Source: Sabellastarte sp. h YS-2021 | Taxonomy: Eukaryota; Annelida; Polychaeta; Sabellida; Sabellidae | Reading direction: 5' to 3' | Assembly (NCBI GenBank): GCA_964017235.1 | Contig: OZ024934.1 | Coordinates: 85,402,706 to 85,466,705 of the forward strand | Length of the DNA stretch: 64,000 bases | In this document: positions 5,471-64,000 of the stretch, piece by piece | How the letters are laid out: each line of letters begins with the position of its first letter | Numbering within the stretch: position 1 is the first letter of the stretch | Program-made: the position numbers and the translations under genes | The notes under the pieces: model-generated | Databases searched by the model: none | The model's input: the letters and a program-made list of their open reading frames with translations, nothing else | Told to the model about the DNA's origin: nothing

Positions 5471-5639
5471 TACATTTTTGTTATGTGTAATGTCAATTTG
5501 TATTTATTTTGATAGACAAAATTGATCAGAAATGAAAAAGGATTTTCCATTTTAACTCACACTGTCATTATTAATGCTCTGTCATAGTCTTCTGTTATTG
5601 AAATGTTGAAATAATAAAGGAGTCTGACACAGGTGATTA

Positions 5640-5905: not shown

Positions 5906-5922
5906 CGTAAGAGTAAGTTGCC

Positions 5923-13645: not shown

Positions 13646-13913
13646 CAAAATGATTTCAGACTTAAATCTAGGAGGGAAACTCATGTCATAACCTGTATTT
13701 GATCCCGCAGAGCCTTTTTTCCTCCGTAACTAAGTCAAATATTGAGATGTAATGCTGGAATTTAGGCAAGACATTATTTGGATGGAAATAGTGTTTATGG
13801 GAATGATTTCAGACTTACATCCAGGTGGGAAACTCATGTTACCACCTGTGAGGGCTCCGACACCCAAGTACCCAGTGTGCCTTTTTTCCTCCATAACTAA
13901 GTCAAATATTGAG
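13646..13913. repeat. Degenerate left-edge monomers of the satellite
   Basis: A partial monomer begins near 13646 (ATGATTTCAGACTTA) with an unusual middle (GTCATAACCTGTATTTGAT). The next has private changes such as TTTAGGCAAGACATTATTTG and ATGGAAATAGTGTTTATGGG. From about 13914 the monomers match the homogenised types seen further right. Divergence at the edge of an array is expected when unequal exchange homogenises the interior more than the ends. Confidence 0.75.
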
Positions 13914-14869
13914 ATGTAATGCTGGAATTTGGGCAGGACATTAGGCGGGTGGCACTAGTAATTATGGGAATCATTTCAAACTTACATCCAAGTGGGAAAC
14001 TCATGTTACCACCTATGAGGGCTCTGACACCCAAGTACCCGGTGCGCCTTTTTTCCTCCAAAACTAAGTCAAATATTGAGATGTAATGCTGGAATTTGGG
14101 CAGGACATTATTTGGGTGGCAATAGTGATTATGAGAATGATTTCAGACTTAAACCTAGGTGGGAAGATCATGTCATGAGGAGACCCAAATCCGATACCCA
14201 AGTACCCAGTGCACCTTTTTTCCTCTGTAACTAAGTCAAATATTGAGATGTAATGCTGGAATTTGGACAGGATATTAGGTGAGTGGCACTAGTGATTATT
14301 GGAATCATTTCAAACTTAAATCCAGGTCAGAAACTCATGTGAGGACCTTTCAGGGCTCTGACACCCAAGTACCCTGTGCGCCTTTTTCCCTCCGTAACTA
14401 AGTCAAATGATGAGATGTAATGCTGGAATTTGGGCAGCACATTAGGTGGGTGGCACTAGTGATTATGGGAATGATTTCAGACTTACATCCAAATGGGAAA
14501 CTCATGTTACCACCTGTGAGGGCTCTGATACCCAAGTACCCGGTGCGCCTTTTTTCCTCTGTAACTAAGTCAAATATTGAGATGTAATGCTGGAATTTGG
14601 GCAGGACATTAGGTGGGTGGCACTAGTAATTATGGGAATCATTTCAAACTTACATCCATGTGGGAAACTCATGTTACCACCTGTGAGGGCTCCAACACCC
14701 AAGTACCCAGTGCGCCCTTTTTTCCTCCATAACTAAGTCAAATATTGAGATGTAATGCTGGAATTTGGGCAGGACATTATTTGGGTGGCAATAGTGATTA
14801 TGAGAATGATTTCAGACTTAAACCTAGGTGGGAAGATCATGTCATGAGGAGACCCAAATCCGATACCCA

Positions 14870-17800
14870 AGTACCCAGTGCGCCCTTTTTTCCTCTGTAA
14901 CTAAGTCAAATGATGAGATGTAATGCTGGAATTTGGGCAGCACATTAGGTGGGTGGCACTAGTGATTATGGGAATGATTTCAGACTTACATCCAAATGGG
15001 AAACTCATGTTACCACCTGTGAGGGCTCTGATACCCAAGTACCCGGTGCGCCTTTTTTCCTCTGTAACTAAGTCAAATATTGAGATGTAATGCTGGAATT
15101 TGGGCAGGACATTAGGTGGGTGGCACTAGTAATTATGGGAATCATTTCAAACTTACATCCATGTGGGAAACTCATGTTACCACCTGTGAGGGCTCCAACA
15201 CCCAAGTACCCAGTGCGCCCTTTTTTCCTCCATAACTAAGTCAAATATTGAGATGTAATGCTGGAATTTGGGCAGGACATTATTTGGGTGGCAATAGTGA
15301 TTATGAGAATGATTTCAGACTTAAACCTAGGTGGGAAGATCATGTCATGAGGAGACCCAAATCCGATACCCAAGTACCCAGTGGACCTTTTTTCCTCTGT
15401 AACTAAGTCAAATATTGAGATGTAATGCTGGAATTTGGACAGGATATTAGGTGAGTGGCACTAGTGATTATTGGAATCATTTCAAACTTAAATCCAGGTC
15501 AGAAACTCATGTGAGGACCTTTCAGGGCTCTGACACCCAAGTACCCTGTGCGCCTTTTTCCCTCCGTAACTAAGTCAAATGATGAGATGTAATGCTGGAA
15601 TTTGGGCAGCACATTAGGTGGGTGGCACTAGTGATTATGGGAATGATTTCAGACTTATATCCAAATGGGAAACTCATGTTACCACCTGTGAGGGCTCTGA
15701 TACCCAAGTACCCGGTGCGCCTTTTTTCCTTTGTAACTAAGTCAAATATTGAGATGTAATGCTGGAATTTGGGCAGGACATTAGGTGGGTGGCACTAGTA
15801 ATTATGGGAATCATTTCAAACTTACATCCATGTGGGAAACTCATGTTACCACCTGTGAGGGCTCCAACACCCAAGTACCCAGTGCGCCCTTTTTTCCTCC
15901 ATAACTAAGTCAAATATTGAGATGTAATGCTGGAATTTCGGCATGACATTAGGTGGGTGGCACTAGTGATTATGGGTATGATTTCAGACTTACATCCAGG
16001 TGGGAAGATCATGTCACGACCAGTCTCGGATCCGACACCCAAGTACCCAGTATGCCTTTTTTCCTCTGTAACTAAGTCAAATATTGAGATGTAATGCTGG
16101 AATTTGGGCAGAACATGAGGTGGGTGGCACTAGTAATTATGGGAATCATTTCAAACTTACATCCAGGTGGGAAACTCATGTTACCACCTGTGAGGGCTCC
16201 GACACCAAGTACCCAGTGCGCCTTTTTTCCTCCATAACTAAGTCAAATATTGAGATGTAATGCTGCAATTTTGGCAGGACATTAGGTGGGTGGCACTAGT
16301 GATTATGGGAATGATTTCAAACTTACATCCAGGTGGGAAACTCATGTTACACCTATGAGGGCTCTGACACCCAAGTACCTGGTGTGCCTTTTTTCCTCCG
16401 TAACTAAGTCAAATATTGAGATGTAATGCTGGAATTTGGGCAGGACATTAGGTGGCTGGCACTAGTAATTATGGGAATCATTTCAAACTTACATCCAGAT
16501 GGGAAACTCATGTTACCACTATGAGGGCTCTGACACCCAAGTACCCGGTGCGCCTTTTTTCCTCCGAAGCTAAGTCAAATATTGAGATGTAATGCTGGAA
16601 TTTGGGCAGGACATTAGGTGGGTGCCACTAGTGATTATGGGTATGATTTCAAACTTACATCCAGGTGGGAAACTCATGTTACCACCTGTGAGGGCTCCGA
16701 CACCCAAGTACCCGGTGCGCTTTTTTTCCTCCATAACTAAGTCAAATATTTTAGATGTAATGCTGGAATTTGGGCAGGACATTAGGTGGGTGGCACTAGT
16801 AATTATGGGAATCATTTCAAACTTACATCCAGGTGGGAAACTCATGTTACCACCTGTGAGGGCTCCAACACCCAAGTACCCGGTGCGCCTTTTTTCCTCC
16901 ATAACTAAGTCAAATTTTGAGATGTAATGCTGGAATTTGGGCAGGACATTAGGTGGGTGGCACTAGTAATTATGGGAATCATTTCAAACTTACATCCAGG
17001 TGGGAAACTCATGTTACCACCTATGAGGGCTCCGACACCCAAGTACCCAGTGCGCTTTTTTTCCTCCAAAACTAAGTCAAATATTGAGATGTAATGCTGG
17101 AATTTGGGCAGGACATTAGGCGGGTGGCACTAGTAATTATGGGAATCATTTCAAACTTACATCCAAGTGGGAAACTCATGTTACCACCTATGAGGGCTCT
17201 GACACCCAAGTACCCGGTGCGCCTTTTTTCCTCCAAAACTAAGTCAAATATTGAGATGTAATGCTGGAATTTGGGCAGGACATTATTTGGGTGGCAATAG
17301 TGATTATGAGAATGATTTCAGACTTAAACCTAGGTGGGAAGATCATGTCATGAGGAGACCCAAATCCGATACCCAAGTACCCAGTGCACCTTTTTTCCTC
17401 TGTAACTAAGTCAAATATTGAGATGTAATGCTGGAATTTGGACAGGATATTAGGTGAGTGGCACTAGTGATTATTGGAATCATTTCAAACTTAAATCCAG
17501 GTCAGAAACTCATGTGAGGACCTTTCAGGGCTCTGACACCCAAGTACCCTGTGCGCCTTTTTCCCTCCGTAACTAAGTCAAATGATGAGATGTAATGCTG
17601 GAATTTGGGCAGCACATTAGGTGGGTGGCACTAGTGATTATGGGAATGATTTCAGACTTACATCCAAATGGGAAACTCATGTTACCACCTGTGAGGGCTC
17701 TGATACCCAAGTACCCGGTGCGCCTTTTTTCTTCTGTAACTAAGTCAAATATTGAGATGTAATGCTGGAATTTGGGCAGGACATTAGGTGGGTGGCACTA

Positions 17801-17876
17801 GTAATTATGGGAATCATTTCAAACTTACATCCATGTGGGAAACTCATGTTACCACCTGTGAGGGCTCCAACACCCA
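14870..17876. repeat. Satellite HOR, 3,007 bp (18-mer), copy 1
   Basis: An ordered series of distinguishable monomers: the GATGAGATG type, the CCATGTGGG type, the TTATTTGGGTGGCAATAG type, the TGGACAGGATATTAGG type, the TTTCGGCATGACATT type, the GCAGAACATGAGG type, the GCTGCAATTTTGGC type, the GGTGGCTGGCAC type, the GGTGCCACTAG type, then the ATTTTAGATG (168-bp) type and others. Each recurs 3,007 bp later. Left-boundary evidence is that the monomer before about 14870 differs in type from the one before 17877. Confidence 0.8.
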
Positions 17877-20800
17877 AGTACCCAGTGCGCCCTTTTTTCC
17901 TCTGTAACTAAGTCAAATGATGAGATGTAATGCTGGAATTTGGGCAGCACATTAGGTGGGTGGCACTAGTGATTATGGGAATGATTTCAGACTTACATCC
18001 AAATGGGAAACTCATGTTACCACCTGTGAGGGCTCTGATACCCAAGTACCCGGTGCGCCTTTTTTCCTCTGTAACTAAGTCAAATATTGAGATGTAATGC
18101 TGGAATTTGGGCAGGACATTAGGTGGGTGGCACTAGTAATTATGGGAATCATTTCAAACTTACATCCATGTGGGAAACTCATGTTACCACCTGTGAGGGC
18201 TCCAACACCCAAGTACCCAGTGCGCCCTTTTTTCCTCCATAACTAAGTCAAATATTGAGATGTAATGCTGGAATTTGGGCAGGACATTATTTGGGTGGCA
18301 ATAGTGATTATGAGAATGATTTCAGACTTAAACCTAGGTGGGAAGATCATGTCATGAGGAGACCCAAATCCGATACCCAAGTACCCAGTGGACCTTTTTT
18401 CCTCTGTAACTAAGTCAAATATTGAGATGTAATGCTGGAATTTGGACAGGATATTAGGTGAGTGGCACTAGTGATTATTGGAATCATTTCAAACTTAAAT
18501 CCAGGTCAGAAACTCATGTGAGGACCTTTCAGGGCTCTGACACCCAAGTACCCTGTGCGCCTTTTTCCCTCCGTAACTAAGTCAAATGATGAGATGTAAT
18601 GCTGGAATTTGGGCAGCACATTAGGTGGGTGGCACTAGTGATTATGGGAATGATTTCAGACTTATATCCAAATGGGAAACTCATGTTACCACCTGTGAGG
18701 GCTCTGATACCCAAGTACCCGGTGCGCCTTTTTTCCTTTGTAACTAAGTCAAATATTGAGATGTAATGCTGGAATTTGGGCAGGACATTAGGTGGGTGGC
18801 ACTAGTAATTATGGGAATCATTTCAAACTTACATCCATGTGGGAAACTCATGTTACCACCTGTGAGGGCTCCAACACCCAAGTACCCAGTGCGCCCTTTT
18901 TTCCTCCATAACTAAGTCAAATATTGAGATGTAATGCTGGAATTTCGGCATGACATTAGGTGGGTGGCACTAGTGATTATGGGTATGATTTCAGACTTAC
19001 ATCCAGGTGGGAAGATCATGTCACGACCAGTCTCGGATCCGACACCCAAGTACCCAGTATGCCTTTTTTCCTCTGTAACTAAGTCAAATATTGAGATGTA
19101 ATGCTGGAATTTGGGCAGAACATGAGGTGGGTGGCACTAGTAATTATGGGAATCATTTCAAACTTACATCCAGGTGGGAAACTCATGTTACCACCTGTGA
19201 GGGCTCCGACACCAAGTACCCAGTGCGCCTTTTTTCCTCCATAACTAAGTCAAATATTGAGATGTAATGCTGCAATTTTGGCAGGACATTAGGTGGGTGG
19301 CACTAGTGATTATGGGAATGATTTCAAACTTACATCCAGGTGGGAAACTCATGTTACACCTATGAGGGCTCTGACACCCAAGTACCTGGTGTGCCTTTTT
19401 TCCTCCGTAACTAAGTCAAATATTGAGATGTAATGCTGGAATTTGGGCAGGACATTAGGTGGCTGGCACTAGTAATTATGGGAATCATTTCAAACTTACA
19501 TCCAGATGGGAAACTCATGTTACCACTATGAGGGCTCTGACACCCAAGTACCCGGTGCGCCTTTTTTCCTCCGAAGCTAAGTCAAATATTGAGATGTAAT
19601 GCTGGAATTTGGGCAGGACATTAGGTGGGTGCCACTAGTGATTATGGGTATGATTTCAAACTTACATCCAGGTGGGAAACTCATGTTACCACCTGTGAGG
19701 GCTCCGACACCCAAGTACCCGGTGCGCTTTTTTTCCTCCATAACTAAGTCAAATATTTTAGATGTAATGCTGGAATTTGGGCAGGACATTAGGTGGGTGG
19801 CACTAGTAATTATGGGAATCATTTCAAACTTACATCCAGGTGGGAAACTCATGTTACCACCTGTGAGGGCTCCAACACCCAAGTACCCGGTGCGCCTTTT
19901 TTCCTCCATAACTAAGTCAAATTTTGAGATGTAATGCTGGAATTTGGGCAGGACATTAGGTGGGTGGCACTAGTAATTATGGGAATCATTTCAAACTTAC
20001 ATCCAGGTGGGAAACTCATGTTACCACCTATGAGGGCTCCGACACCCAAGTACCCAGTGCGCTTTTTTTCCTCCAAAACTAAGTCAAATATTGAGATGTA
20101 ATGCTGGAATTTGGGCAGGACATTAGGCGGGTGGCACTAGTAATTATGGGAATCATTTCAAACTTACATCCAAGTGGGAAACTCATGTTACCACCTATGA
20201 GGGCTCTGACACCCAAGTACCCGGTGCGCCTTTTTTCCTCCAAAACTAAGTCAAATATTGAGATGTAATGCTGGAATTTGGGCAGGACATTATTTGGGTG
20301 GCAATAGTGATTATGAGAATGATTTCAGACTTAAACCTAGGTGGGAAGATCATGTCATGAGGAGACCCAAATCCGATACCCAAGTACCCAGTGCACCTTT
20401 TTTCCTCTGTAACTAAGTCAAATATTGAGATGTAATGCTGGAATTTGGACAGGATATTAGGTGAGTGGCACTAGTGATTATTGGAATCATTTCAAACTTA
20501 AATCCAGGTCAGAAACTCATGTGAGGACCTTTCAGGGCTCTGACACCCAAGTACCCTGTGCGCCTTTTTCCCTCCGTAACTAAGTCAAATGATGAGATGT
20601 AATGCTGGAATTTGGGCAGCACATTAGGTGGGTGGCACTAGTGATTATGGGAATGATTTCTGACTTACATCCAAATGGGAAACTCATGTTACCACCTGTG
20701 AGGGCTCTGATACCCAAGTACCCGGTGCGCCTTTTTTCCTCTGTAACTAAGTCAAATATTGAGATGTAATGCTGGAATTTGGGCAGGACATTAGGTGGGT

Positions 20801-20883
20801 GGCACTAGTAATTATGGGAATCATTTCAAACTTACATCCATGTGGGAAACTCATGTTACCACCTGTGAGGGCTCCAACACCCA
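17877..20883. repeat. Satellite HOR, 3,007 bp (18-mer), copy 2
   Basis: Matches copy 1 monomer for monomer, including private variants such as CTTATATCCA (15655 and 18662 regions) and the one-base-short GACACCAAGTACC. The few differences I noted include GATTTCTGACTTAC near 20659 (GATTTCAGACTTAC in the equivalent of copy 1) and TTTCTTCTG versus TTTCCTCTG near 17732/20739. Similarity this high implies a recent duplication or strong gene conversion. Confidence 0.8.
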
Positions 20884-22124
20884 AGTACCCAGTGCGCCCT
20901 TTTTTCCTCCATAACTAAGTCAAATATTGAGATGTAATGCTGGAATTTGGGCAGGACATTATTTGGGTGGCAATAGTGATTATGAGAATGATTTCAGACT
21001 TAAACCTAGGTGGGAAGATCATGTCATGAGGAGACCCAAATCCGATACCCAAGTACCCAGTGCGCCCTTTTTTCCTCTGTAACTAAGTCAAATGATGAGA
21101 TGTAATGCTGGAATTTGGGCAGCACATTAGGTGGGTGGCACTAGTGATTATGGGAATAATTTCAGACTTACATCCAAATGGGAAACTCATGTTACCACCT
21201 GTGAGGGCTCTGATACCCAAGTACCCGGTGCGCCTTTTTCCTCTGTAACTAAGTCAAATATTGAGATGTAATGCTGGAATTTGGGCAGGACATTAGGTGG
21301 GTGGCACTAGTAATTATGGGAATCATTTCAAACTTACATCCATGTGGGAAACTCATGTTACCACCTGTGAGGGCTCCAACACCCAAGTACCCAGTGCGCC
21401 CTTTTTTCCTCCATAACTAAGTCAAATATTGAGATGTAATGCTGGAATTTGGGCAGGACATTATTTGGGTGGCAATAGTGATTATGAGAATGATTTCAGA
21501 CTTAAACCTAGGTGGGAAGATCATGTCATGAGGAGGCCCAAATCCGATACCCAAGTACCCAGTGGACCTTTTTTCCTCTGTAACTAAGTCAAATATTGAG
21601 ATGTAATGCTGGAATTTGGACAGGATATTAGGTGAGTGGCACTAGTGATTATTGGAATCATTTCAAACTTAAATCCAGGTCAGAAACTCATGTGAGGACC
21701 TTTCAGGGCTCTGACACCCAAGTACCCTGTGCGCCTTTTTCCCTCCGTAACTAAGTCAAATGATGAGATGTAATGCTGGAATTTGGGCAGCACATTAGGT
21801 GGGTGGCACTAGTGATTATGGGAATGATTTCAGACTTACATCCAAATGGGAAACTCATGTTACCACCTGTGAGGGCTCTGATACCCAAGTACCCGGTGCG
21901 CCTTTTTTCCTTTGTAACTAAGTCAAATATTGAGATGTAATGCTGGAATTTGGGCAGGACATTAGGTGGGTGGCACTAGTAATTATGGGAATCATTTCAA
22001 ACTTACATCCATGTGGGAAACTCATGTTACCACCTGTGAGGGCTCCAACACCCAAGTACCCAGTGCGCCCTTTTTTCCTCCATAACTAAGTCAAATATTG
22101 AGATGTAATGCTGGAATTTCGGCA
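20884..22124. repeat. Satellite, short rearranged HOR segment between blocks
   Basis: The same monomer alphabet as the neighbouring blocks, in a shortened order: the TTATTTGGGTGGCAATAG type, the GATGAGATG type and the CCATGTGGG type alternate before the TTTCGGCATGAC type appears. It contains small private variants (GGAATAATTTCAG near 21155, AGGAGGCCC near 21535). It does not keep either the 3,007-bp or the 5,682-bp register across its full length. Confidence 0.6.
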
Positions 22125-25100
22125 TGACATTAGGTGGGTGGCACTAGTGATTATGGGAATGATTTCAGACTTACATCCAAATGGGAAACTCATGTTACCA
22201 CCTGTGAGGGCTCTGATACCCAAGTACCCGGTGCGCCTTTTTTCCTCTGTAACTAAGTCAAATATTGAGATGTAATGCTGGAATTTGGGCAGGACATTAG
22301 GTGGGTGGCACTAGTAATTATGGGAATCATTTCAAACTTACATCCATGTGGGAAACTCATGTTACCACCTGTGAGGGCTCCAACACCCAAGTACCCAGTG
22401 CGCCCTTTTTTCCTCCATAACTAAGTCAAATATTGAGATGTAATGCTGGAATTTCGGCATGACATTAGGTGGGTGGCACTAGTGATTATGGGAATGATTT
22501 CAGACTTACATCCAAATGGGAAACTCATGTTACCACCTGTGAGGGCTCTGATACCCAAGTACCCGGTGCGCCTTTTTTCCTCTGTAACTAAGTCAAATAT
22601 TGAGATGTAATGCTGGAATTTGGGCAGGACATTAGGTGGGTGGCACTAGTAATTATGGGAATCATTTCAAACTTACATCCATGTGGGAAACTCATGTTAC
22701 CACCTGTGAGGGCTCCAACACCCAAGTACCCAGTGCGCCCTTTTTTCCTCTGTAACTAAGTCAAATGATGAGATGTAATGCTGGAATTTGGGCAGCACAT
22801 TAGGTGGGTGGCACTAGTGATTATGGGAATGATTTCAGACTTACATCCAAATGGGAAACTCATGTTACCACCTGTGAGGGCTCTGATACCCAAGTACCCG
22901 GTGCGCCTTTTTTCCTCTGTAACTAAGTCAAATATTGAGATGTAATGCTGGAATTTGGGCAGGACATTAGGTGGGTGGCACTAGTAATTATGGGAATCAT
23001 TTCAAACTTACATCCATGTGGGAAACTCATGTTACCACCTGTGAGGGCTCCAACACCCAAGTACCCAGTGCGCCCTTTTTTCCTCCATAACTAAGTCAAA
23101 TATTGAGATGTAATGCTGGAATTTGGGCAGGACATTATTTGGGTGGCAATAGTGATTATGAGAATGATTTCAGACTTAAACCTAGGTGGGAAGATCATGT
23201 CATGAGGAGACCCAAATCCGATACCCAAGTACCCAGTGGACCTTTTTTCCTCTGTAACTAAGTCAAATATTGAGATGTAATGCTGGAATTTGGACAGGAT
23301 ATTAGGTGAGTGGCACTAGTGATTATTGGAATCATTTCAAACTTAAATCCAGGTCAGAAACTCATGTGAGGACCTTTCAGGGCTCTGACACCCAAGTACC
23401 CTGTGCGCCTTTTTCCCTCCGTAACTAAGTCAAATGATGAGATGTAATGCTGGAATTTGGGCAGCACATTAGGTGGGTGGCACTAGTGATTATGGGAATG
23501 ATTTCAGACTTACATCCAAATGGGAAACTCATGTTACCACCTGTGAGGGCTCTGATACCCAAGTACCCGGTGCGCCTTTTTTCCTTTGTAACTAAGTCAA
23601 ATATTGAGATGTAATGCTGGAATTTGGGCAGGACATTAGGTGGGTGGCACTAGTAATTATGGGAATCATTTCAAACTTACATCCATGTGGGAAACTCATG
23701 TTACCACCTGTGAGGGCTCCAACACCCAAGTACCCAGTGCGCCCTTTTTTCCTCCATAACTAAGTCAAATATTGAGATGTAATGCTGGAATTTCGGCATG
23801 ACACTAGGTGGGTGGCACTAGTGATTATGGGTATGATTTCAGACTTACATCCAGGTGGGAAGATCATGTCACGACCAGTCTCGGATCCGACACCCAAGTA
23901 CCCAGTATGCCTTTTTTCCTCTGTAACTAAGTCAAATATTGAGATGTAATGCTGGAATTTGGGCAGAACATGAGGTGGGTGGCACTAGTAATTATGGGAA
24001 TCATTTCAAACTTACATCCAGGTGGGAAACTCATGTTACCACCTGTGAGGGCTCCGACACCAAGTACCCAGTGCGCCTTTTTTCCTCCATAACTAAGTCA
24101 AATATTGAGATGTAATGCTGCAATTTTGGCAGGACATTAGGTGGGTGGCACTAGTGATTATGGGAATGATTTCAAACTTACATCCAGGTGGGAAACTCAT
24201 GTTACACCTATGAGGGCTCTGACACCCAAGTACCTGGTGTGCCTTTTTTCCTCCGTAACTAAGTCAAATATTGAGATGTAATGCTGGAATTTGGGCAGGA
24301 CATTAGGTGGCTGGCACTAGTAATTATGGGAATCATTTCAAACTTACATCCAGATGGGAAACTCATGTTACCACTATGAGGGCTCTGACACCCAAGTACC
24401 CGGTGCGCCTTTTTTCCTCCAAAGCTAAGTCAAATATTGAGATGTAATGCTGGAATTTGGGCAGGACATTAGGTGGGTGCCACTAGTGATTATGGGTATG
24501 ATTTCAAACTTACATCCAGGTGGGAAACTCATGTTACCACCTGTGAGGGCTCCGACACCCAAGTACCCGGTGCGCTTTTTTTCCTCCATAACTAAGTCAA
24601 ATATTTTAGATGTAATGCTGGAATTTGGGCAGGACATTAGGTGGGTGGCACTAGTAATTATGGGAATCATTTCAAACTTACATCCAGGTGGGAAACTCAT
24701 GTTACCACCTGTGAGGGCTCCAACACCCAAGTACCCAGTGCGCCCTTTTTTCCTCCATAACTAAGTCAAATATTGAGATGTAATGCTGGAATTTCGGCAT
24801 GACATTAGGTGGGTGGCACTAGTGATTATGGGAATGATTTCAGACTTACATCCAAATGGGAAACTCATGTTACCACCTGTGAGGGCTCTGATACCCAAGT
24901 ACCCGGTGCGCCTTTTTTCCTCTGTAACTAAGTCAAATATTGAGATGTAATGCTGGAATTTGGGCAGGACATTAGGTGGGTGGCACTAGTAATTATGGGA
25001 ATCATTTCAAACTTACATCCATGTGGGAAACTCATGTTACCACCTGTGAGGGCTCCAACACCCAAGTACCCAGTGCGCCCTTTTTTCCTCTGTAACTAAG

Positions 25101-41520: not shown

Positions 41521-41539
41521 GGGTGGCACTACTGATTAT

Positions 41540-44500: not shown

Positions 44501-45047
44501 TGCTGGAATTTGGGCAGGACACTAGGTGGGTGGCACTAGTAATTATGGGAATCATTTCAAACTTACATCCAGGTGGGAAACTCATGTTACCACCTATGAG
44601 GGCTCTGACACCCAAGTACCCGGTGCGCCTTTTTTCCTCCAAAACTAAGTCAAATATTGAGATGTAATGCTGGAATTTGGGCAGGACATTAGGTGGGTGG
44701 CACTACTGATTATGGGTATGATTTCAAACTTACATCCAGGTGGGAAACTCATGTTACCACCTATGAGGGCTCTGACACCCAAGTACCCGGTGCGTCTTTT
44801 TTCCTCCAAAACTAAGTCAAATATTGAGATGTAATGCTGGAATTTGGGCAGGACATTAGGTGGGTGGCACTACTGATTATGGGTATGATTTCAAACTTAC
44901 ATCCAGGTGGGAAACTCATGTTACCACCTATGAGGGCTCTGACACCCAAGTACCTGGTGCGGCTTTTTTCCTCCGAAACTAAGTCAAATATTGAGATGTA
45001 ATGCTGGAATTTGGGCAGGACATTAGGTGGGTGGCACTAGTGATTAT
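41540..45047. repeat. Satellite HOR, 3,508 bp (21-mer), copy 1
   Basis: GACATTACGCGGG at 41845 recurs at 45353 (3,508 bp), and GTACGCGGTGCCC at 43781 recurs at 47288 (3,507 bp). The one-base change in spacing is explained by an extra T in GGGCTCTTGACACC near 42768. Boundaries are approximate: left of 41540 the CACTACTG/CACTAGTG types no longer match. Confidence 0.75.
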
Positions 45048-51800: not shown

Positions 51801-54540
51801 ACCCGGTGCACCTTTTTTCCTCCATAACTAAGTCAAATATTGAGATGTAATGCTGGAATTTGGGCAGGACATTAGGTGGGTGGCACTAGTAATTATGGGA
51901 ATCATTTCAAACTTACATCCAGGTGGGAAACTCATGTTACCACCTATGAGGGCTCCGACACCCAAGTACGCGGTGCGCTTTTTTTCCTCCATAACTAAGT
52001 CAAATATTGAGATGTAATGCTGGAATTTGGGCAGGACATTAGGTGGGTGGCACTAGTAATTATGGGAATCATTTCAAACTTACATCCAGATGGGAAACTC
52101 ATGTTACCACCTATGAGGGCTCTGACACCCAAGTACCCGGTGCGCCTTTTTTCCTCCGAAACTAAGTCAAATATTGAGATGTAATGCTGGAATTTGGGCA
52201 GGACATTAGGTGGGTGGCACTAGTGATTATGGGTATGATGTCAAACTTACATCCAGGTGGGAAACTCATGTTACCACCTATGAGGGCTCCAACACCCAAG
52301 TACCCGGTGCGCTTTTTTTCCTCCATAACTAAGTCAAATATTTTAGATGTAATGCTGGAATTTGGGCAGGACATTAGGTGGGTGGCACTAGTAATTATGG
52401 GAATCATTTCAAACTTACAACCAGATGGGAAACTTATGTTACCACCTATGAGGGCTCTGACACCCAAGTACCCGGTGCGCCTTTTTTCCTCCGAAACTAA
52501 GTCAAATATTGAGATGTAATGCTGGAATTTGGGCAGGACATTAGGTGGGTGCCACTAGTGATTATGGGTATGATTTCAAACTTACATCCATTTGGGAAAC
52601 TCATGTTACCACCTGTGAGGGCTCCGACACCCAAGTACCCGGTGCGCTTTTTTTCCTCCATAACTAAGTCAAATATTTTAGATGTAATGCTGGAATTTGG
52701 GCAGGACATTAGGTGGGTGGCACTAGTAATTATGGGAATCATTTGAAACTTACATCCAGGTGGGAAACTCATGTTACCACCTGTGAGGGCTCCGACACCC
52801 AAGTACCCGGTGCGCCTTTTTTCCTCCATAACTAAGTCAAATATTGAGATGTAATGCTGGAATTTGGGCAGGACATTAGGTGGGTGGCACTAGTAATTAT
52901 GGGAATCATTTCAAACTTACATCCAGGTGGGAAACTCATGTTACCACCTATGAGAGCTCCGACACCCAAGTACCCAGTGCGCTTTTTTTTCTCCAAAACT
53001 AAGTCAAATATTGAGATGTAATGCTGGAATTTGGGCAGGACATTAGGTGGGTGGCACTAGTAATTATGGGAATCATTTCAAACTTACATCCAGGTGGGAA
53101 ACTCATGTTACCACCTATGAGGGCTCTGACACCCAAGTACCCGGTGCGCCTTTTTTCCTCCAAAACTAAGTCAAATATTGAGATGTAATGCTGGAATTTG
53201 GGCAGGACATTAGGTGGGTGGCACTACTGATTATGGGTATGATTTCAAACTTACATCCAGGTGGGAAACTCATGTTACCACCTATGAGGGCTCTGACACC
53301 CAAGTACCGGGTGCGCCTTTTTTCCTCCAAAACTAAGTCAAATATTGAGATGTAATGCTGGAATTTGGGCAGGACATTAGGTGGGTGGCACTACTGATTA
53401 TGGGTATGATTTCAAACTTACATCCAGGTGGGAAACTCATGTTACCACCTATGAGGGCTCTGACACCCAAGTACCCGGTGCGCCTTTTTTCCTCCGAAAC
53501 TAAGTCAAATATTGAGATGTAATGCTGGAATTTGGGCAGGACATTAGGTGGGTGGCACTAGTGATTATGGGTATGATTTCAAACTTACATCCAGGTGGGA
53601 AACTCATGTTACCACCTATGAGGGCTCCGACACCCAAGTACCCGGTGCGCCTTTTTTCCTCCATAACTAAGTCAAATATCGAGATGTGATGCTGGAATTT
53701 GGGCAGGACACTAGGTGGGTGGCACTAGTAATTATGGGAATCATTTCAAACTTACATCCAGATGGGAAACTTATGTTACCACCTATGAGGGCTCTGACAC
53801 CCAAGTACCCGGTGCGCCTTTTTTCCTCCGAAACTAAATCAAATATTGAGATGTAATGCTGGAATTTGGGCAGGACATTAGGCGGGTGGCACTAGTAATT
53901 ATGGGAATCATTTCAAACTTACATCCAGGTGGGAAACTCATGTTACCACCTATGAGGGCTCCGACACCCAAGTACCCAGTGCGCTTTTTTTCTCCAAAAC
54001 TAAGTCAAATATTGAGATGTAATGCTGGAATTTGGGCAGGACATTAGGTGGGTGGCTTTAGTAATTATCGGAATCATTTCAAACTTACATCCAGGTGGGA
54101 AACTCATGTTACCACCTATGAGGGCTCCGACAACCAAGTACCCGGTGCACCTTTTTTCCTCCATAACTAAGTCAAATATTAAGATGTAATGCTGGAATTT
54201 GGGCAGGACATTAGGTGGGTGGCACTAGTAATTATGGGAATCATTTCAAACTTACATCCAGGTGGGAAACTCATGTTACCACCTATGAGGGCTCCGACAC
54301 CCAAGTACGCGGTGCGCTTTTTTTCCTCCATAACTAAGTCAAATATTGAGATGTAATGCTGGAATTTGGGCAGGACATTAGGTGGGTGGCACTAGTAATT
54401 ATGGGAATCATTTCAAACTTACATCCAGATGGGAAACTTATGTTACCACCTATGAGGGCTCTGACACCCAAGTACCCGGTGCGCCTTTTTTCCTCCGAAA
54501 CTAAGTCAAATATTGAGATGTAATGCTGGAATTTGGGCAG
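48300..54540. repeat. Satellite macro-HOR, about 6.2-6.35 kb, copy 1
   Basis: Offset to the next copy is 6,182 bp in part of the block (AAACTGACATCC near 51246 and 57428; 49.2-51.4 kb region) and 6,348-6,349 bp in the rest (GTGCGTC near 48300 and 54648; GCTTTTTTTCTCC near 53983 and 60331). The two offsets differ by exactly one monomer (167 bp), so the copies differ by gain or loss of single monomers near 48.8 and 51.5 kb. Confidence 0.7.
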
Positions 54541-54599
54541 GACATTAGGTGGGTGGCACTACTGATTATGGGTATGATTTCAAACTTACATCCAGGTGG

Positions 54600-57500
54600 G
54601 AAACTCATGTTACCACCTATGAGGGCTCTGACACCCAAGTACCCGGTGCGTCTTTTTTCCTCCAAAACTAAGTCAAATATTGAGATGTAATGCTGGAATT
54701 TGGGCAGGACATTAGGTGGGTGGCACTACTGATTATGGGTATGATTTCAAACTTACATCCAGGTGGGAAACTCATGTTACCACCTATGAGGGCTCTGACA
54801 CCCAAGTACCTGGTGCGGCTTTTTTCCTCCGAAACTAAGTCAAATATTGAGATGTAATGCTGGAATTTGGGCAGGACATTAGGTGGGTGGCACTAGTGAT
54901 TATGGGTATGATTTCAAACTTACATCCAGGTGGGAAACTCATGTTACCACCTATGAGGGCTCCGACACCCAAGTACCCGGTGCGCCTTTTTTCCTCCATA
55001 ACTAAGTCAAATATCGAGATGTGATGCTGGAATTTGGGCAGGACACTAGGTGGGTGGCACTAGTAATTATGGGAATCATTTCAAACTTACATCCAGGTGG
55101 GAAACTCATGTTACCACCTATGAGGGCTCCGACACCCAAGTACCCAGTGCGCTTTTTTTCCTCCAAAACTAAGTCAAATATTGAGATGTAATGCTGGAAT
55201 TTGGGCAGGACATTAGGTGGGTGGCTTTAGTAATTATCGGAATCATTTCAAACTTACATCCAGGTGGGAAACTCATGTTACCACCTATGAGGGCTCCGAC
55301 ACCCAAGTAGCGGGTGCACCTTCTTTCCTCCATAACTAAGTCAAATATTGAGATGTAAAGCTGGAATTTGGGCAGGACATTAGGTGGGTGGCACTAGTAA
55401 TTATGGGAATCATTTCAAACTTACATCCAGGTGGGAAACTCATGTTACCACCTATGAGGGCTCCGACACCCAAGTACGCGGTGCGCTTTTTTTCCTCCAT
55501 AACTAAGTCAAATATTGAGATGTAATGCTGGAATTTGGGCAGGACATTAGGTGGGTGGCACTAGTAATTATGGGAATCATTTCAAACTTACATCCAGATG
55601 GGAAACTTATGTTACCACCTATGAGGGCTCTGACACCCAAGTACCCGGTGCGCCTTTTTTCCTCCGAAACTAAGTCAAATATTGAGATGTAATGCTGGAA
55701 TTTGGGCAGGACATTAGGTGGGTGGCACTAGTGATTATGGGTATGATTTCAAACTTACATCCAGGTGGGAAACTCATGTTACCACCTGTGAGGGCTCCGA
55801 CACCCAAGTACCCGGTGCGCCTTTTTTCCTCCATAACTAAGTCAAATATTGAGATGTAATGCTGGAATTTGGGCAGGACATTAGGTGGGTGGCACTAGTA
55901 ATTATGGGAATCATTTCAAACTTACATCCAGGTGGGAAACTCATGTTACCACCTATGAGGGCTCCGACACCCAAGTACCCGGTGCGCTTTTTTTCCTCCA
56001 TAACTAAGTCAAATATTGAGATGTAATGCTGGAATTTGGGCAGGACATTAGGTGGGTGGCACTAGTAATTATGGGAATCATTTCAAACTTACATCCAGAT
56101 GGGAAACTCATGTTACCACCTATGAGGGCTCTGACACCCAAGTACCCGGTGCGCCTTTTTTCCTCCGAAACTAAGTCAAATATTGAGATGTAATGCTGGA
56201 ATTTGGGCAGGACATTAGGTGGGTGGCACTAGTGATTATGGGTATGATGTCAAACTTACATCCAGGTGGGAAACTCATGTTACCACCTATGAGGGCTCCA
56301 ACACCCAAGTACCCGGTGCGCTTTTTTTCCTCCATAACTAAGTCAAATATTTTAGATGTAATGCTGGAATTTGGGCAGGACATTAGGTGGGTGGCACTAG
56401 TAATTATGGGAATCATTTCAAACTTACAACCAGATGGGAAACTCATGTTACCACCTATGAGGGCTCTGACACCCAAGTACCCGGTGCGCCTTTTTTCCTC
56501 CGAAACTAAGTCAAATATTGAGATGTAATGCTGGAATTTGGGCAGGACATTAGGTGGGTGCCACTAGTGATTATGGGTATGATTTCAAACTTACATCCAT
56601 TTGGGAAACTCATGTTACCACCTGTGAGGGCTCCGACACCCAAGTACCCGGTGCGCTTTTTTTCCTCCATAACTAAGTCAAATATTTTAGATGTAATGCT
56701 GGAATTTGGGCAGGACATTAGGTGGGTGGCACTAGTAATTATGGGAATCATTTGAAACTTACATCCAGGTGGGAAACTCATGTTACCACCTGTGAGGGCT
56801 CCGACACCCAAGTACCCGGTGCGCCTTTTTTCCTCCATAACTAAGTCAAATATTGAGATGTAATGCTGGAATTTGGGCAGGACATTAGGTGGGTGGCACT
56901 AGTAATTATGGGAATCATTTCAAACTTACATCCAGGTGGGAAACTCATGTTACCACCTATGAGAGCTCCGACACCCAAGTACCCAGTGCGCTTTTTTTTC
57001 TCCAAAACTAAGTCAAATATTGAGATGTAATGCTGGAATTTGGGCAGGACATTAGGTGGGTGGCACTAGTAATTATGGGAATCATTTCAAACTTACATCC
57101 AGGTGGGAAACTCATGTTACCACCTATGAGGGCTCTGACACCCAAGTACCCGGTGCGCCTTTTTTCCTCCAAAACTAAGTCAAATATTGAGATGTAATGC
57201 TGGAATTTGGGCAGGACATTAGGTGGGTGGCACTACTGATTATGGGTATGATTTCAAACTTACATCCAGGTGGGAAACTCATGTTACCACCTATGAGGGC
57301 TCTGACACCCAAGTACCGGGTGCGCCTTTTTTCCTCCAAAACTAAGTCAAATATTGAGATGTAATGCTGGAATTTGGGCAGGACATTAGGTGGGTGGCAC
57401 TACTGATTATGGGTATGATTTCAAACTGACATCCAGGTGGGAAACTCATGTTACCACCTATGAGGGCTCTGACACCCAAGTACCCGGTGCGCCTTTTTTC

Positions 57501-60500
57501 CTCCGAAACTAAGTCAAATATTGAGATGTAATGCTGGAATTTGGGCAGGACATTAGGTGGGTGGCACTAGTGATTATGGGTATGATTTCAAACTTACATC
57601 CAGGTGGGAAACTCATGTTACCACCTATGAGGGCTCCGACACCCAAGTACCCGGTGCGCCTTTTTTCCTCCATAACTAAGTCAAATATCGAGATGTGATG
57701 CTGGAATTTGGGCAGGACACTAGGTGGGTGGCACTAGTAATTATGGGAATCATTTCAAACTTACATCCAGATGGGAAACTTATGTTACCACCTATGAGGG
57801 CTCTGACACCCAAGTACCCGGTGCGCCTTTTTTCCTCCGAAACTAAATCAAATATTGAGATGTAATGCTGGAATTTGGGCAGGACATTAGGCGGGTGGCA
57901 CTAGTAATTATGGGAATCATTTCAAACTTACATCCAGGTGGGAAACTCATGTTACCACCTATGAGGGCTCCGACACCCAAGTACCCAGTGCGCTTTTTTT
58001 CCTCCAAAACTAAGTCAAATATTGAGATGTAATGCTGGAATTTGGGCAGGACATTAGGTGGGTGGCTTTAGTAATTATCGGAATCATTTCAAACTTACAT
58101 CCAGGTGGGAAACTCATGTTACCACCTATGAGGGCTCCGACAACCAAGTACCCGGTGCACCTTTTTTCCTCCATAACTAAGTCAAATATTGAGATGTAAT
58201 GCTGGAATTTGGGCAGGACATTAGGTGGGTGGCACTAGTAATTATGGGAATCATTTCAAACTTACATCCAGGTGGGAAACTCATGTTACCACCTATGAGG
58301 GCTCCGACACCCAAGTACGCGGTGCGCTTTTTTTCCTCCATAACTAAGTCAAATATTGAGATGTAATGCTGGAATTTGGGCAGGACATTAGGTGGGTGGC
58401 ACTAGTAATTATGGGAATCATTTCAAACTTACATCCAGATGGGAAACTCATGTTACCACCTATGAGGGCTCTGACACCCAAGTACCCGGTGCGCCTTTTT
58501 TCCTCCGAAACTAAGTCAAATATTGAGATGTAATGCTGGAATTTGGGCAGGACATTAGGTGGGTGGCACTAGTGATTATGGGTATGATGTCAAACTTACA
58601 TCCAGGTGGGAAACTCATGTTACCACCTATGAGGGCTCCAACACCCAAGTACCCGGTGCGCTTTTTTTCCTCCATAACTAAGTCAAATATTTTAGATGTA
58701 ATGCTGGAATTTGGGCAGGACATTAGGTGGGTGGCACTAGTAATTATGGGAATCATTTCAAACTTACAACCAGATGGGAAACTTATGTTACCACCTATGA
58801 GGGCTCTGACACCCAAGTACCCGGTGCGCCTTTTTTCCTCCGAAACTAAGTCAAATATTGAGATGTAATGCTGGAATTTGGGCAGGACATTAGGTGGGTG
58901 CCACTAGTGATTATGGGTATGATTTCAAACTTACATCCATTTGGGAAACTCATGTTACCACCTGTGAGGGCTCCGACACCCAAGTACCCGGTGCGCTTTT
59001 TTTCCTCCATAACTAAGTCAAATATTTTAGATGTAATGCTGGAATTTGGGCAGGACATTAGGTGGGTGGCACTAGTAATTATGGGAATCATTTGAAACTT
59101 ACATCCAGGTGGGAAACTCATGTTACCACCTGTGAGGGCTCCGACACCCAAGTACCGGTGCGCCTTTTTTCCTCCATAACTAAGTCAAATATTGAGATGT
59201 AATGCTGGAATTTGGGCAGGACATTAGGTGGGTGGCACTAGTAATTATGGGAATCATTTCAAACTTACATCCAGGTGGGAAACTCATGTTACCACCTATG
59301 AGAGCTCCGACACCCAAGTACCCAGTGCGCTTTTTTTTCTCCAAAACTAAGTCAAATATTGAGATGTAATGCTGGAATTTGGGCAGGACATTAGGTGGGT
59401 GGCACTAGTAATTATGGGAATCATTTCAAACTTACATCCAGGTGGGAAACTCATGTTACCACCTATGAGGGCTCTGACACCCAAGTACCCGGTGCGCCTT
59501 TTTTCCTCCAAAACTAAGTCAAATATTGAGATGTAATGCTGGAATTTGGGCAGGACATTAGGTGGGTGGCACTACTGATTATGGGTATGATTTCAAACTT
59601 ACATCCAGGTGGGAAACTCATGTTACCACCTATGAGGGCTCTGACACCCAAGTACCGGGTGCGCCTTTTTTCCTCCAAAACTAAGTCAAATATTGAGATG
59701 TAATGCTGGAATTTGGGCAGGACATTAGGTGGGTGGCACTACTGATTATGGGTATGATTTCAAACTTACATCCAGGTGGGAAACTCATGTTACCACCTAT
59801 GAGGGCTCTGACACCCAAGTACCCGGTGCGCCTTTTTTCCTCCGAAACTAAGTCAAATATTGAGATGTAATGCTGGAATTTGGGCAGGACATTAGGTGGG
59901 TGGCACTAGTGATTATGGGTATGATTTCAAACTTACATCCAGGTGGGAAACTCATGTTACCACCTATGAGGGCTCCGACACCCAAGTACCCGGTGCGCCT
60001 TTTTTCCTCCATAACTAAGTCAAATATCGAGATGTGATGCTGGAATTTGGGCAGGACACTAGGTGGGTGGCACTAGTAATTATGGGAATCATTTCAAACT
60101 TACATCCAGATGGGAAACTTATGTTACCACCTATGAGGGCTCTGACACCCAAGTACCCGGTGCGCCTTTTTTCCTCCGAAACTAAATCAAATATTGAGAT
60201 GTAATGCTGGAATTTGGGCAGGACATTAGGCGGGTGGCACTAGTAATTATGGGAATCATTTCAAACTTACATCCAGGTGGGAAACTCATGTTACCACCTA
60301 TGAGGGCTCCGACACCCAAGTACCCAGTGCGCTTTTTTTCTCCAAAACTAAGTCAAATATTGAGATGTAATGCTGGAATTTGGGCAGGACATTAGGTGGG
60401 TGGCTTTAGTAATTATCGGAATCATTTCAAACTTACATCCAGGTGGGAAACTCATGTTACCACCTATGAGGGCTCCGACAACCAAGTACCCGGTGCACCT

Positions 60501-60890
60501 TTTTTCCTCCATAACTAAGTCAAATATTGAGATGTAATGCTGGAATTTGGGCAGGACATTAGGTGGGTGGCACTAGTAATTATGGGAATCATTTCAAACT
60601 TACATCCAGGTGGGAAACTCATGTTACCACCTATGAGGGCTCCGACACCCAAGTACGCGGTGCGCTTTTTTTCCTCCATAACTAAGTCAAATATTGAGAT
60701 GTAATGCTGGAATTTGGGCAGGACATTAGGTGGGTGGCACTAGTAATTATGGGAATCATTTCAAACTTACATCCAGATGGGAAACTTATGTTACCACCTA
60801 TGAGGGCTCTGACACCCAAGTACCCGGTGCGCCTTTTTTCCTCCGAAACTAAGTCAAATATTGAGATGTAATGCTGGAATTTGGGCAGGA
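54600..60890. repeat. Satellite macro-HOR, about 6.2-6.35 kb, copy 2
   Basis: Same order as copy 1 apart from whole-monomer indels. Private changes include GTAGCGGGTGCACCTTCTTT near 55308 and a one-base deletion GTACCGGTGCGCC near 59152. The register ends near 60890, where CACTACTG of copy 1 (54558) corresponds to CACTAGTG. Confidence 0.7.
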
Positions 60891-61499
60891 CATTAGGTGG
60901 GTGGCACTAGTGATTATGGGTATGATTTCAAACTTACATCCAGGTGGGAAACTCATGTTACCACCTGTGAGGGCTCCGACACCCAAGTACCCGGTGCACC
61001 TTTTTTCCTCCATAACTAAGTCAAATATTGAGATGTAATGCTGGAATTTCGGCAGGACATTAGGTGGGTGGCACTAGTAATTATGGGAATCATTTCAAAC
61101 TTACATTTAGATGGGAAACTCATGTTACCACCTATGAGGGCTCTGACACCCAAGTACCCGGTGCGCCTTTTTTCCTCCGAAACTAAGTCAAATATTGAGA
61201 TGTAATGCTGGAATTTGGGCAGGACATTAGGTGGGTGGCACTAGTGATTATGGGTATGATGTCAAACTTACATCCAGGTGGGAAACTCATGTTACCACCT
61301 ATGAGGGCTCCAACACCGAAGTACCCGGTGCGCTTTTTTTCCTCCATAACTAAGTCAAATATTTTAGATGTAATGCTGGAATTTGGGCAGGACATTAGGT
61401 GGGTGGCACTAGTAATTATGGGAATCATTTCAAACTTACAACCAGATGGGAAACTTATGTTACCACCTATGAGGGCTCTGACACCCAAGTACCCGGTGC

Positions 61500-64000
61500 G
61501 CCTTTTTTCCTCCGAAACTAAGTCAAATATTGAGATGTAATGCTGGAATTTGGGCAGGACATTAGGTGGGTGCCACTAGTGATTATGGGTATGATTTCAA
61601 ACTTACATCCATTTGGGAAACTCATGTTACCACCTGTGAGGGCTCCGACACCCAAGTACCCGGTGCGCTTTTTTTCCTCCATAACTAAGTCAAATATTTT
61701 AGATGTAGTGCTGGAATTTGGGCAGGACATTAGGTGGGTGGCACTAGTAATTATGGGAATCATTTCAAACTTACATCCAGGTGGGAAACTCATGTTACCA
61801 CCTATGAGGGCTCCGACACCCAAGTACCCGGTGCGCCTTTTTTCCTCCGAAACTAAGTCAAATATTTTAGATGTAATGCTGGTATTTGGGCAGGACATTA
61901 GGTGTGTCTCACTAGTAATTATGGGAATCATTTCAAACTTACATCCAGGTGGGAAACTCATGTTACCACCTATGAGGGCTCCGACAGCCAAGTACCCGGT
62001 GCGCCTTTTTTCCTCCATAACTAAGTCAAATATTTTAGATGTAATGCTGGAATTTGGGCAGGACATTAGGTGGGTGTCACTAGTAATTATGGGAATCATT
62101 TCAAACTTACATCCAGGTGGGAAACTCATGTTACCACCTATGAGGGCTCCGACACCCAAGTACCCGGTGCGCTTTTTTCCTCCATAACTAAGTCAAATAT
62201 TGAGATGTAATGCTGGAATTTGGGCAGCACATTAGGTGGGTGGCACTAGTGATTATGGGTATGATGTCAAACTTACATCCAGGTGGGAAACTCATGTTAC
62301 CACCTGTGAGGGCTCCGACATCCAAGTACCCGGTTCGCCTTTTTTCCTCCATAACTAAGTCAAATATTTTAGATGTAATGCTGGAATTTGGGCAGGACAT
62401 TAGGTGGGTGGCACTAGTAATTATGGGAATCATTTCAAACTTACATCCAGATGGGAAACCTATGTTACCACCTATGAGGGCTCTGACACCCAAGTACCCG
62501 GTGCCCCTTTTTTCCTCCGAAACTAAGTCAAATATTGAGATGTAATGCTGGAATTTGGGCAGGACATTAGGTGGGTGACACTAGTGATGATGGGTATGAT
62601 TTCAAACTTACATCCAGGTGGGAAACTCATGTTACCACCTATGAGGGCTCCGACACCCAAGTAACCGGTGCGCCTTTTTTCCTCCATAACTAAGTCAAAT
62701 ATTGAGATGTAATACTGGAATTTGGGCAGGACATTAGGTGGGTGTCACTAGTAATTATCAGAATCATTTCAAATTTACATCCAGATGGGAAACTTATGTT
62801 ACCACCTATGAGGGCTCTGACACCCAAGTACCCGGTGAGCCTTTTTTCCTCCGAAACTAAGTCAAATATTGAGATGTAATGCTGGAATTTGGGCAACACA
62901 TTAGGTGGGTGGCACTAGTGATTATGGGTATGATTTCAAACTTACATCCAGGTGGGAAACTCATGTTACCACCTGTGAGGGCTCCGACACCCAAGTACCC
63001 GGTGCGCCTTTTTTCCTCCATAACTAAGTCAAATATTGAGATGTAATGCTGGAATTTGGGCAGGACATTAGGTGGGTGGCACTAGTAATTATGGGAATCA
63101 TTTCAAACTTACATCCAGATGGGAAACTCATGTTACCACCTATGAGGGTTCTGACACCCAAGTACCCGGTGCGCCTTTTTTCCTCCGAAACGAAGTCAAA
63201 TATTGAGATGTAATGCTGGTATTTGGGCAGGACATTAGGTGGGTGTCACTAGTAATTATGGGAATCATTTCAAACTTACATCCAGGTGGGAAACTCATGT
63301 TACCACCTATGAGGGCTCCGACAGCCAAGTACCCAGTGCGCCTTTTTTCCTCCATAACTAAGTCAAATATTTTAGATGTAATTCTGGAATTTGGGCAGGA
63401 CATTAGGTGGGTGGCACTAGTAATTATGGGAATCATTTCAAACTTACATCCAGGTGGGAAACTCATGTTACCACCTATGAGGGCTCCGACACCCAAGTAC
63501 CCGGTGCGCCTTTTTTCCTCCGAAACTAAGTCAAATATTTTAGATGTAATGCTGGAATTTGGGCAGGACATTAGGTGGGTGTCACTAGTAATTATGGGAA
63601 TCATTAAAAACTTACATCCAGGTGGGAAACTCATATTACCACCTATGAGGGCTCCGACAGCCAAGTACCCGGTGCGCCTTTTTTCCTCCATAACTAAGTC
63701 AAATATTTTAGATGTAATGCTGGAATTTGGGCAGGACATTAGGTGGGTGTCACTAGTAATTATGGGAATCATTTCAAACTTACATCCAGGTGGGAAACTC
63801 ATGTTACCACCTATGAGGGCTCCGACACCCAAGTACCCGGTGCGCCTTTTTTCCTCCGAAACTAAGTCAAATATTTTAGATGTAATGCTGGAATTTGGGC
63901 AGGACATTAGGTCGGTGTCACTAGTAATTATGGGAATCATTTCAAACTTACATCCAGGTGGGAAACTCATGTTACCACCTATGAGGGCTCCGACAGCCAA
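61500..64000. repeat. Diversified right end of array, rich in 168-bp monomers
   Basis: Runs of monomers carry ATATTTTAGATG instead of ATATTGAGATG, making them 168 bp: landmarks at 61533, 61701, 61869 and 62037, and at 63206, 63374, 63542, 63710 and 63878, are all 168 bp apart. New private variants (GGTATTTGGGC, GGGTGTCACTAG, CCGACAGCCAAG, CAACACATTAGG, CATTAAAAACTTAC) are frequent and no multi-kilobase register was found. Because 168 is a multiple of three, both strands stay open here (about 215 codons on + at 61540-62187, about 213 on - at 61518-62159, and over 286 on - from 64000 to 63140). Confidence 0.8.

What the first reader, a model, noticed from the sequence alone, without database searches (positions are those of the whole stretch)
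13646..64000. 50-kb uninterrupted 167-bp satellite with true higher-order repeat structure
Around 300 monomers run without any transposon or spacer. They are not randomly mixed: distinguishable monomer types recur in fixed order over 14-38-mer units. Satellite HORs of this kind are best known from primate centromeres and are less often documented in invertebrates. The absence of insertions and the near-identity of HOR copies suggest ongoing homogenisation, as in active centromeric or pericentromeric arrays.
Basis: partly seen in the sequence, partly recalled or inferred. Interest (0 to 1): 0.75.

Follow-up and report, generated by a model that had tools for sequence, protein, structure and literature searches.

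The report
Annelid satellite array with higher-order repeats
A 58-kilobase block of repeated DNA, very probably from a feather-duster worm, is built from recurring multi-copy modules rather like human centromere DNA, but it looks like a small side array and has not been shown to be a centromere.

Summary
From 13,649 to the window end, and 7,893 bases beyond, runs one 58.2-kb array of about 350 head-to-tail monomers (167 bp, sometimes 166 or 168), all on one strand, with no inserted element. Monomer order is far from random: a 20-mer module with 18-, 19-, 14- and 10-mer forms on the left, modules starting '2 21 21' in the middle, a 15-mer on the right.

The active-centromere reading is not shown. 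The host is very probably the annelid Sabellastarte sp. h YS-2021. On the same chromosome the family is dense at 99.08-99.54 Mb, about 13.6 Mb away, with a plain 3-mer module; sampled arrays on five other chromosomes carry their own modules. A motif of the window's monomer type occurs only here (108 of 108), and a p190RhoGAP exon lies 70 kb away.

Best explanation: a recently amplified local offshoot of a genome-wide satellite, grown by out-of-register exchange; a few chimeric monomers near module ends agree. Higher-order repeats are a known kind; my searches listed none for annelids.

The parts
13649..64000 (+). 167-bp satellite array, part inside the window; continues 7,893 bases past the window end
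13649..36143 (+). zone I: forms of a 20-mer module in which some monomer types occur more than once (cascading type)
   Evidence: border from the change of monomer types at piece 135
36144..61202 (+). zone II: modules beginning with types '2 21 21', split lengths 25, 10, 11, 10, 11, 17, 13, 24, 14 plus a tail
61203..64000 (+). zone III, window part: less regular monomers; its repeated 14-monomer block at a step of 15 lies past the window
14921..17927 (+). 18-mer form of the zone I module (3,007 bp)
22776..25115 (+). 14-mer form of the zone I module (2,340 bp)
25116..28457 (+). 20-mer form of the zone I module (3,342 bp)
28458..30797 (+). second 14-mer form
30798..34139 (+). second 20-mer form
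22273..30294 (+). 48-monomer block repeated from 27,955 (shift 5,682 bp, 3 mismatches in 8,022 bp); the two copies overlap

Best explanation
A small, self-contained, locally amplified array of a genome-wide satellite family, very probably in the annelid Sabellastarte. One lineage of monomers was seeded at about 85.4 Mb of this chromosome and expanded. Blocks of up to tens of monomers were then repeatedly duplicated and deleted by homologous out-of-register exchange (unequal crossing-over between sister chromatids, or template switching in break repair), giving nested modules of varying length. Shown: array limits, module order, near-identity of copies, one clade of monomers against the sampled arrays, a monomer motif private to the array. 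Inferred: the exchange mechanism, the recent date, and that the array has no centromere role, the centromere more likely lying at 99.08-99.54 Mb.
For: Monomer order and near-identical blocks. 118 of 118 distinct window monomers form one clade without any of the 113 sampled monomers of other arrays (support 0.888). Type motif 108 of 108 here. Left flank otherwise single copy. 3 of 41 monomer types are best explained as two-parent chimeras (column-permuted controls 0, 0 and 1 of 300 as good), and they sit at or next to module ends in zone I. A toy neutral model gives order of the same general kind. Edge monomers lie further from the consensus than those of the middle zone and have poorer partners. 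A p190RhoGAP exon 70 kb away. Dense family region with a different, 3-mer module on the same chromosome.
Against: The chimera test passes for only 3 of 41 types, without correction for 41 tests, and types 7 and 15 name each other as a parent. The toy model's settings were chosen by hand, and the observed longest block (48) exceeds all 40 runs (15-41). No chromatin data. Family matches many megabases apart also occur on C1 (58.5 and 70.9-71.1 Mb), C7 and C18, so 13 Mb does not by itself place the array outside a wide pericentromere. The maps are samples, so nearer family fragments may have been missed. The right flank search did not complete.
Confidence: 0.75

Rival explanations
1. The array is the functional centromere of this chromosome or part of its pericentromere, homogenised through kinetochore-linked replication stress and repair.
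For: Near-nucleosomal monomer, long near-identical modules, edges more divergent than the middle zone, as described for primate centromere arrays (PMC8997354, passages). The family has large arrays on several chromosomes. Other chromosomes also show family matches many megabases apart.
Against: Only 58 kb and a private type. The dense family region of this chromosome is elsewhere. Surroundings hold transposon frames and a gene exon. No CENP-B box above one shuffle, though many centromeres lack it.
Confidence: 0.17
2. The module copies are partly an assembly product (collapsed or duplicated paths in a satellite).
For: Mean read length is 9.1 kb, computed from the published yield, against an 8,022-bp block with 3 mismatches. 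The published and held versions differ in length for 5 of 14 chromosomes, this one included.
Against: The longest exact repeat in the array is 6,458 bp, shorter than the mean read. No N in the window or the fetched stretches. Modules vary in composition rather than repeating one path.
Confidence: 0.05
3. The array is carried by a mobile element (as with Helentron-borne satellite-like arrays).
For: Known in another lophotrochozoan, the Pacific oyster (PMC7492417, title and start of abstract in a search listing). The same dispersed element lies on both sides of the array (window 2,714-4,840 and L022 about 3,070-7,949), though kilobases from the edges.
Against: The kilobase next to the left edge has one full-length match in the genome, itself; the other 39 rows are pieces of 64-157 bases. 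The type occurs at one place. The right flank could not be tested.
Confidence: 0.03

Closest known systems
[quoted passage not shown]
   Same: Module in which a monomer type occurs more than once; canonical module plus shortened and extended forms; near-nucleosomal monomer
   Different: Human array is megabases long and in a centromere; human monomers within a module differ by about 20-40%, here all monomers of the array average 92% identity; no CENP-B box found here
Higher-order satellites of the Drosophila ananassae subgroup (PMC11917152, passages)
   Same: Invertebrate higher-order satellite, long uninterrupted stretches with few transposons
   Different: There up to 2 Mb and pericentromeric; here 58 kb at a site not shown to be pericentromeric
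Dimeric higher-order satellites of Tribolium castaneum that differ between chromosomes (PMC10218199, passages)
   Same: Invertebrate satellite with higher-order forms that differ between chromosomes
   Different: Dimers in the passages seen; here modules of 10 to 25 monomers, and 3-mers and longer on other chromosomes
The same family elsewhere in this genome (C1, C7, C8 99 Mb, C11, C18, C20)
   Same: Same satellite family, mean monomer identity 76-80% to the window type
   Different: Short or chromosome-typical modules: 487 bp (C1, C8), 487/1,463 bp (C18), 986 bp (C7), near 987 bp (C11), 2,791 bp (C20)

Membership tests
Higher-order-repeat satellite (general class) | Copies of the multi-monomer module are much more alike than the monomers within it | tested here: met
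   12 block pairs 99.75-99.96%; mean monomer pair 92.1%; adjacent monomers differ by 7-25 positions on average by region
Higher-order-repeat satellite (general class) | Monomer types recur in order beyond chance | tested here: met
   500 and 1,000 shuffles; 14 clustering settings
Willard-type higher-order repeat | Each monomer type once per module, one dominant module length | tested here: not met
   Types 3, 4, 5 and 6 recur inside the 20-mer; module length varies
Cascading higher-order repeat | Module with repeated monomer types | tested here: met
   definition from PMC11157248
Primate alpha satellite | CENP-B box | tested here: not met
   Window array: no site with 2 or fewer mismatches to the essential bases, one shuffle had 102; the 99-Mb array sample had 5 sites with one mismatch, its shuffle 3 (motif typed from recall). 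Some alpha-satellite monomers lack the box too
Primate alpha satellite | Sequence homology to alpha satellite | not tested
   No alpha-satellite sequence was compared; host very probably an annelid
Centromeric satellite | CENP-A chromatin | not testable with these tools
   No chromatin data
Mobile-element-borne satellite (Helentron-like) | The same flanking element beside arrays at several loci | tested here: inconclusive
   Left flank single copy; right flank search did not complete (last try)

The most novel reading that the evidence does not exclude
This annelid has evolved, independently of primates, a satellite system organised like alpha satellite: a near-nucleosomal monomer, modules that differ between chromosomes, and monomer types shared by some chromosomes (C8 with C18, C1 with C20). 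The window array is a small, kinetochore-free offshoot whose long cascading modules show that complex higher-order repeats can form without kinetochore-linked break repair.
Probability: 0.35. Interest if true: 0.7.

Novelty: new member of a known kind. Interest (0 to 1): 0.45.

Why it matters
Long higher-order modules are mostly discussed with primate centromeres, and one model ties their complexity to break-induced replication at the kinetochore (PMC8997354, passages). An assembled 58-kb array with modules of up to 20 or more monomers, in a genome whose other sampled arrays of the same family carry mostly shorter modules, is a compact natural test of whether such complexity needs a centromere. 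It also points to candidate centromere repeats in an annelid genome whose published note uses neither the word stem 'centromer' nor 'satellite' in its main text.

Tried and rejected
Coding function: open frames of up to 286 aa on both strands arise because 168-bp monomers keep the frame. For two of them Pfam lists weak repeat sums with no single stretch passing, three of which exceed a curated cut-off in total; read as repeat artefacts. RNA families: none at gathering score. tRNA: none. CENP-B box: not above one mononucleotide shuffle. Mobile-element origin: left flank single copy.

Mapping other chromosomes: one variant pattern was badly chosen (its letter set still held the common base) and gave 2,493 hits, the 100 listed all on C1; the complementary set gave 0 hits. 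Two rarer variants gave usable maps (104 hits, 100 listed; 35 hits, all listed). Each map samples one variant, so a missing chromosome means little: C2, C3, C4, C6, C14, C19 and C21 were not seen. A first monomer comparison failed because its phase motif did not fit other arrays and was redone by alignment to the consensus. Dropped before counts: other-array pieces outside 145-175 bp or matching the consensus at 60% or less, and window monomers outside 160-170 bp; identical window copies were counted once; only 3 kb per array was used (two stretches for C8). In one search, types with a single member (41 of 66 types kept).

Species: named from chromosome lengths in PMC13234546 (abstract, passages and section 17). 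9 of 14 published lengths agree to 0.01 Mb with held contigs; chromosomes 8, 9, 10, 13 and 14 are shorter in the held genome by 0.02-6.6 Mb, so the version differs. No sequence-level check of the species was possible.

Literature: (bivalve, mollusc, annelid, insect, invertebrate, polychaete, Darwin Tree of Life, with satellite and higher-order repeat or centromere terms) listed no paper on higher-order satellites in an annelid; the library holds open-licence papers only. An earthworm telomere-to-telomere paper predicts centromeres and its main text holds neither 'monomer' nor 'higher-order' (PMC12130307, passages). PMC13081366: whole-word search found nothing although the listing counted one occurrence. 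One search searched Tribolium; one search followed an early guess that the host was a zebra mussel, dropped. Passages of PMC5874043 and PMC8122249 were also seen.

Full report
WHAT IS THERE. The array starts at window position 13,649, runs to the window end and 7,893 bases further, to C8:85,474,598 of the assembly; it is 58.2 kb long. The consensus unit is 167 bp. Of 350 pieces, 243 are 167 bp, 75 are 168, 26 are 166, 2 are 164 and 4 are short. All 351 blastn hits are on the + strand; none lies in the remaining 92 kb fetched contiguously to the right, in 20 kb fetched to the left, or in the window before 13,649.

HIGHER-ORDER STRUCTURE. Average-linkage clustering at 3 differences gives 66 types. 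Zone I (to about 36.1 kb) opens with 8 monomers and then splits into units of 18, 19, 10, 14, 20, 14, 20 and 15 monomers, the last cut by the change to zone II; I read them as forms of one 20-mer. Zone II (36.1-61.2 kb) splits at '2 21 21' into units of 25, 10, 11, 10, 11, 17, 13, 24 and 14 monomers plus a tail. Zone III, mostly beyond the window, repeats a block of 14 monomers at a step of 15. The best lags are 34, 14, 38, 54, 21 and 20 monomers; 34 is 14 + 20 and 54 is 34 + 20. The longest repeated block is 48 monomers; none of 20 shuffles had a block of 6 or more. Over 14 combinations of method and threshold, lags 34 and 14 stay in the top three and the longest block is 48-50, against at most 8 in 5 shuffles each; at the loosest average-linkage cut the lower-ranked lags come down to the shuffle maximum. 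The 12 block pairs compared are 99.75-99.96% identical. 335 of 346 monomers have a partner within 3 differences; monomers at the right end and the first ten lie further from the consensus than zone II and have poorer partners.

GENOME AND LOCATION. The window is G000:C8:85,402,706-85,466,705 in a genome of 1,785,957,881 bases and 647 contigs. Nine of 14 published chromosome lengths of Sabellastarte sp. h YS-2021 agree with held contigs to 0.01 Mb, so the host is very probably that annelid in another assembly version. Around the array: DIRS-like open frames to the left (that label is recalled, Pfam gave no match), reverse transcriptase or transposase frames in three of the fetched stretches, and a p190RhoGAP exon at C8:85,544,288-85,545,082, 70 kb to the right (Pfam RhoGAP-FF1 E = 7.4e-23; PDB match to ARHGAP35, E = 4.1e-23).

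THE FAMILY ELSEWHERE. A 36-base core has 928 forward and 1,341 reverse exact matches, 210 of them in this array. On C8 a match at 98.75 Mb and dense matches at 99.08-99.54 Mb are the nearest seen; five 10-kb samples from 99.18-99.51 Mb are each covered over 98%. Other places: C1 58.48-58.60 and 70.9-71.1 Mb, C5 73.6, C7 51.9 and 101.4, C11 32.25-32.49, C18 58.2, 65.6 and 74.8, C20 20.4-22.2, and contig C447. Single matches among these (C5, C7 101.4, C18 65.6 and 74.8, C447) may be fragments. Samples: C8 at 99 Mb, a 3-mer of 487 bp (153 + 167 + 167), with extra or missing type calls in the three strings printed; its three types are 80-87% identical to each other. C1, a 3-mer of 487 bp, five neighbour pairs 96.3-99.2%. 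C18, the same three types as C8 at 93-97%, with a 1,463-bp superunit (one pair, 99.6%). C7, a 986-bp unit (two pairs, 97.3 and 99.1%). C11, mixed units near 987 bp (two pairs, about 95%). C20, a 2,791-bp spacing in 21 of 32 intervals, the unit including about 0.8 kb that does not match the satellite. Modules thus differ between chromosomes, while C8 and C18 (best pair 96%) and C1 and C20 (best pair 93%) share types.

PLACE OF THE WINDOW ARRAY. Its monomers average 76-80% identity to each other group (maximum 88%) and 92% among themselves; 118 of 118 distinct window monomers form one clade free of the 113 others (support 0.888). A motif of its type occurs 108 times in the genome, and 108 times here. 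An earlier small, unrooted tree placed the three C8 types among the divergent window types rather than outside them; the larger sample separates them.

MECHANISM. Modules that vary by whole monomers point to in-phase homologous exchange between misaligned copies. Type 17 is type 8 on its left and type 5 on its right; types 15 (left part of type 6) and 7 (left part of type 3) share a right end, each naming the other as right parent. Types 7 and 15 end zone I modules and 17 stands beside 15, so module borders look like old exchange points. Only 3 of 41 types pass this test, uncorrected for 41 tests. In a toy model with random duplication and deletion of 1-40 monomers, starting from an array of distinct monomers, 40 runs gave 26-163 types, longest blocks of 15-41 and top lag scores of 0.10-0.33, against 66, 48 and 0.196 observed; the longest block lies above every run. 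Settings were chosen by hand, so this shows only that order of this general kind needs no selection or centromere role. Unequal exchange and break-induced replication are both proposed in print (PMC8997354, passages); these data do not separate them.

ASSEMBLY QUALITY. Mean HiFi read length is 9.1 kb, computed from the published yield. The longest exact repeat in the array is 6,458 bp, so a typical read can span it; copy number in the most uniform part of zone I still rests on few differences.

WHAT IS KNOWN. Higher-order satellites are widespread: 76 of 171 species with Sanger data (PMC4053949, passages). Invertebrate cases include the Drosophila ananassae subgroup (PMC11917152, passages) and dimers in Tribolium (PMC10218199, passages). 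The searches named in Tried and rejected listed none for annelids. I file the array as a new member of a known kind.

VERDICT. The centromere reading is possible but less likely than a small side array grown by exchange. The wider result, a satellite family with modules that differ between chromosomes, very probably in an annelid, is the more interesting part; it was sampled, not mapped in full.

Noticed in passing
L063 (C20:22,006,400-22,009,400) and C20:21.95-22.05 Mb: A 2,791-bp higher-order unit (21 of 32 spacings) that has about 0.8 kb of non-satellite DNA built into it, so an insertion was amplified with the module.
   Followed up: partly
C8:99.08-99.54 Mb (L036-L040): Dense family region with a 487-bp 3-mer; most listed matches are on + but a group at 99.214-99.220 Mb is on -, suggesting an inversion. 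Candidate centromere of this chromosome.
   Followed up: partly
L066 (C18:58,238,100-58,241,100): Same three monomer types as the C8 99-Mb array at 93-97%, with a 1,463-bp superunit: a type shared between two chromosomes.
   Followed up: partly
window 6805-8525; L034 1-3989; period also in L028: A second, different satellite of 169 bp (TGGGTCGAAAATTTCGACG...), dispersed as short arrays near the main array.
   Followed up: no
L031-L032 (C8:85,382,706-85,402,705): A 681-bp periodicity just left of the window (self-match 0.74 in L032); TRF with a 500-bp limit does not report it.
   Followed up: no
window 2714-4840 and L022 about 3070-7949: The same dispersed element, 78-93% identical in pieces, lies on both sides of the array at some kilobases from its edges; DIRS-like by recall only.
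   Followed up: partly
L028 7583-8377 (C8:85,544,288-85,545,082): Exon of a p190RhoGAP (ARHGAP35/ARHGAP5-like) gene 70 kb right of the array.
   Followed up: yes
window 61540-62187 (+) and 63140-64000 (-): Open frames of 215 and 286 aa inside the satellite, a by-product of consecutive 168-bp monomers.
   Followed up: yes
L021 136-312: An 89-bp-period partial monomer duplication, one of few irregular joints in the array.
   Followed up: no
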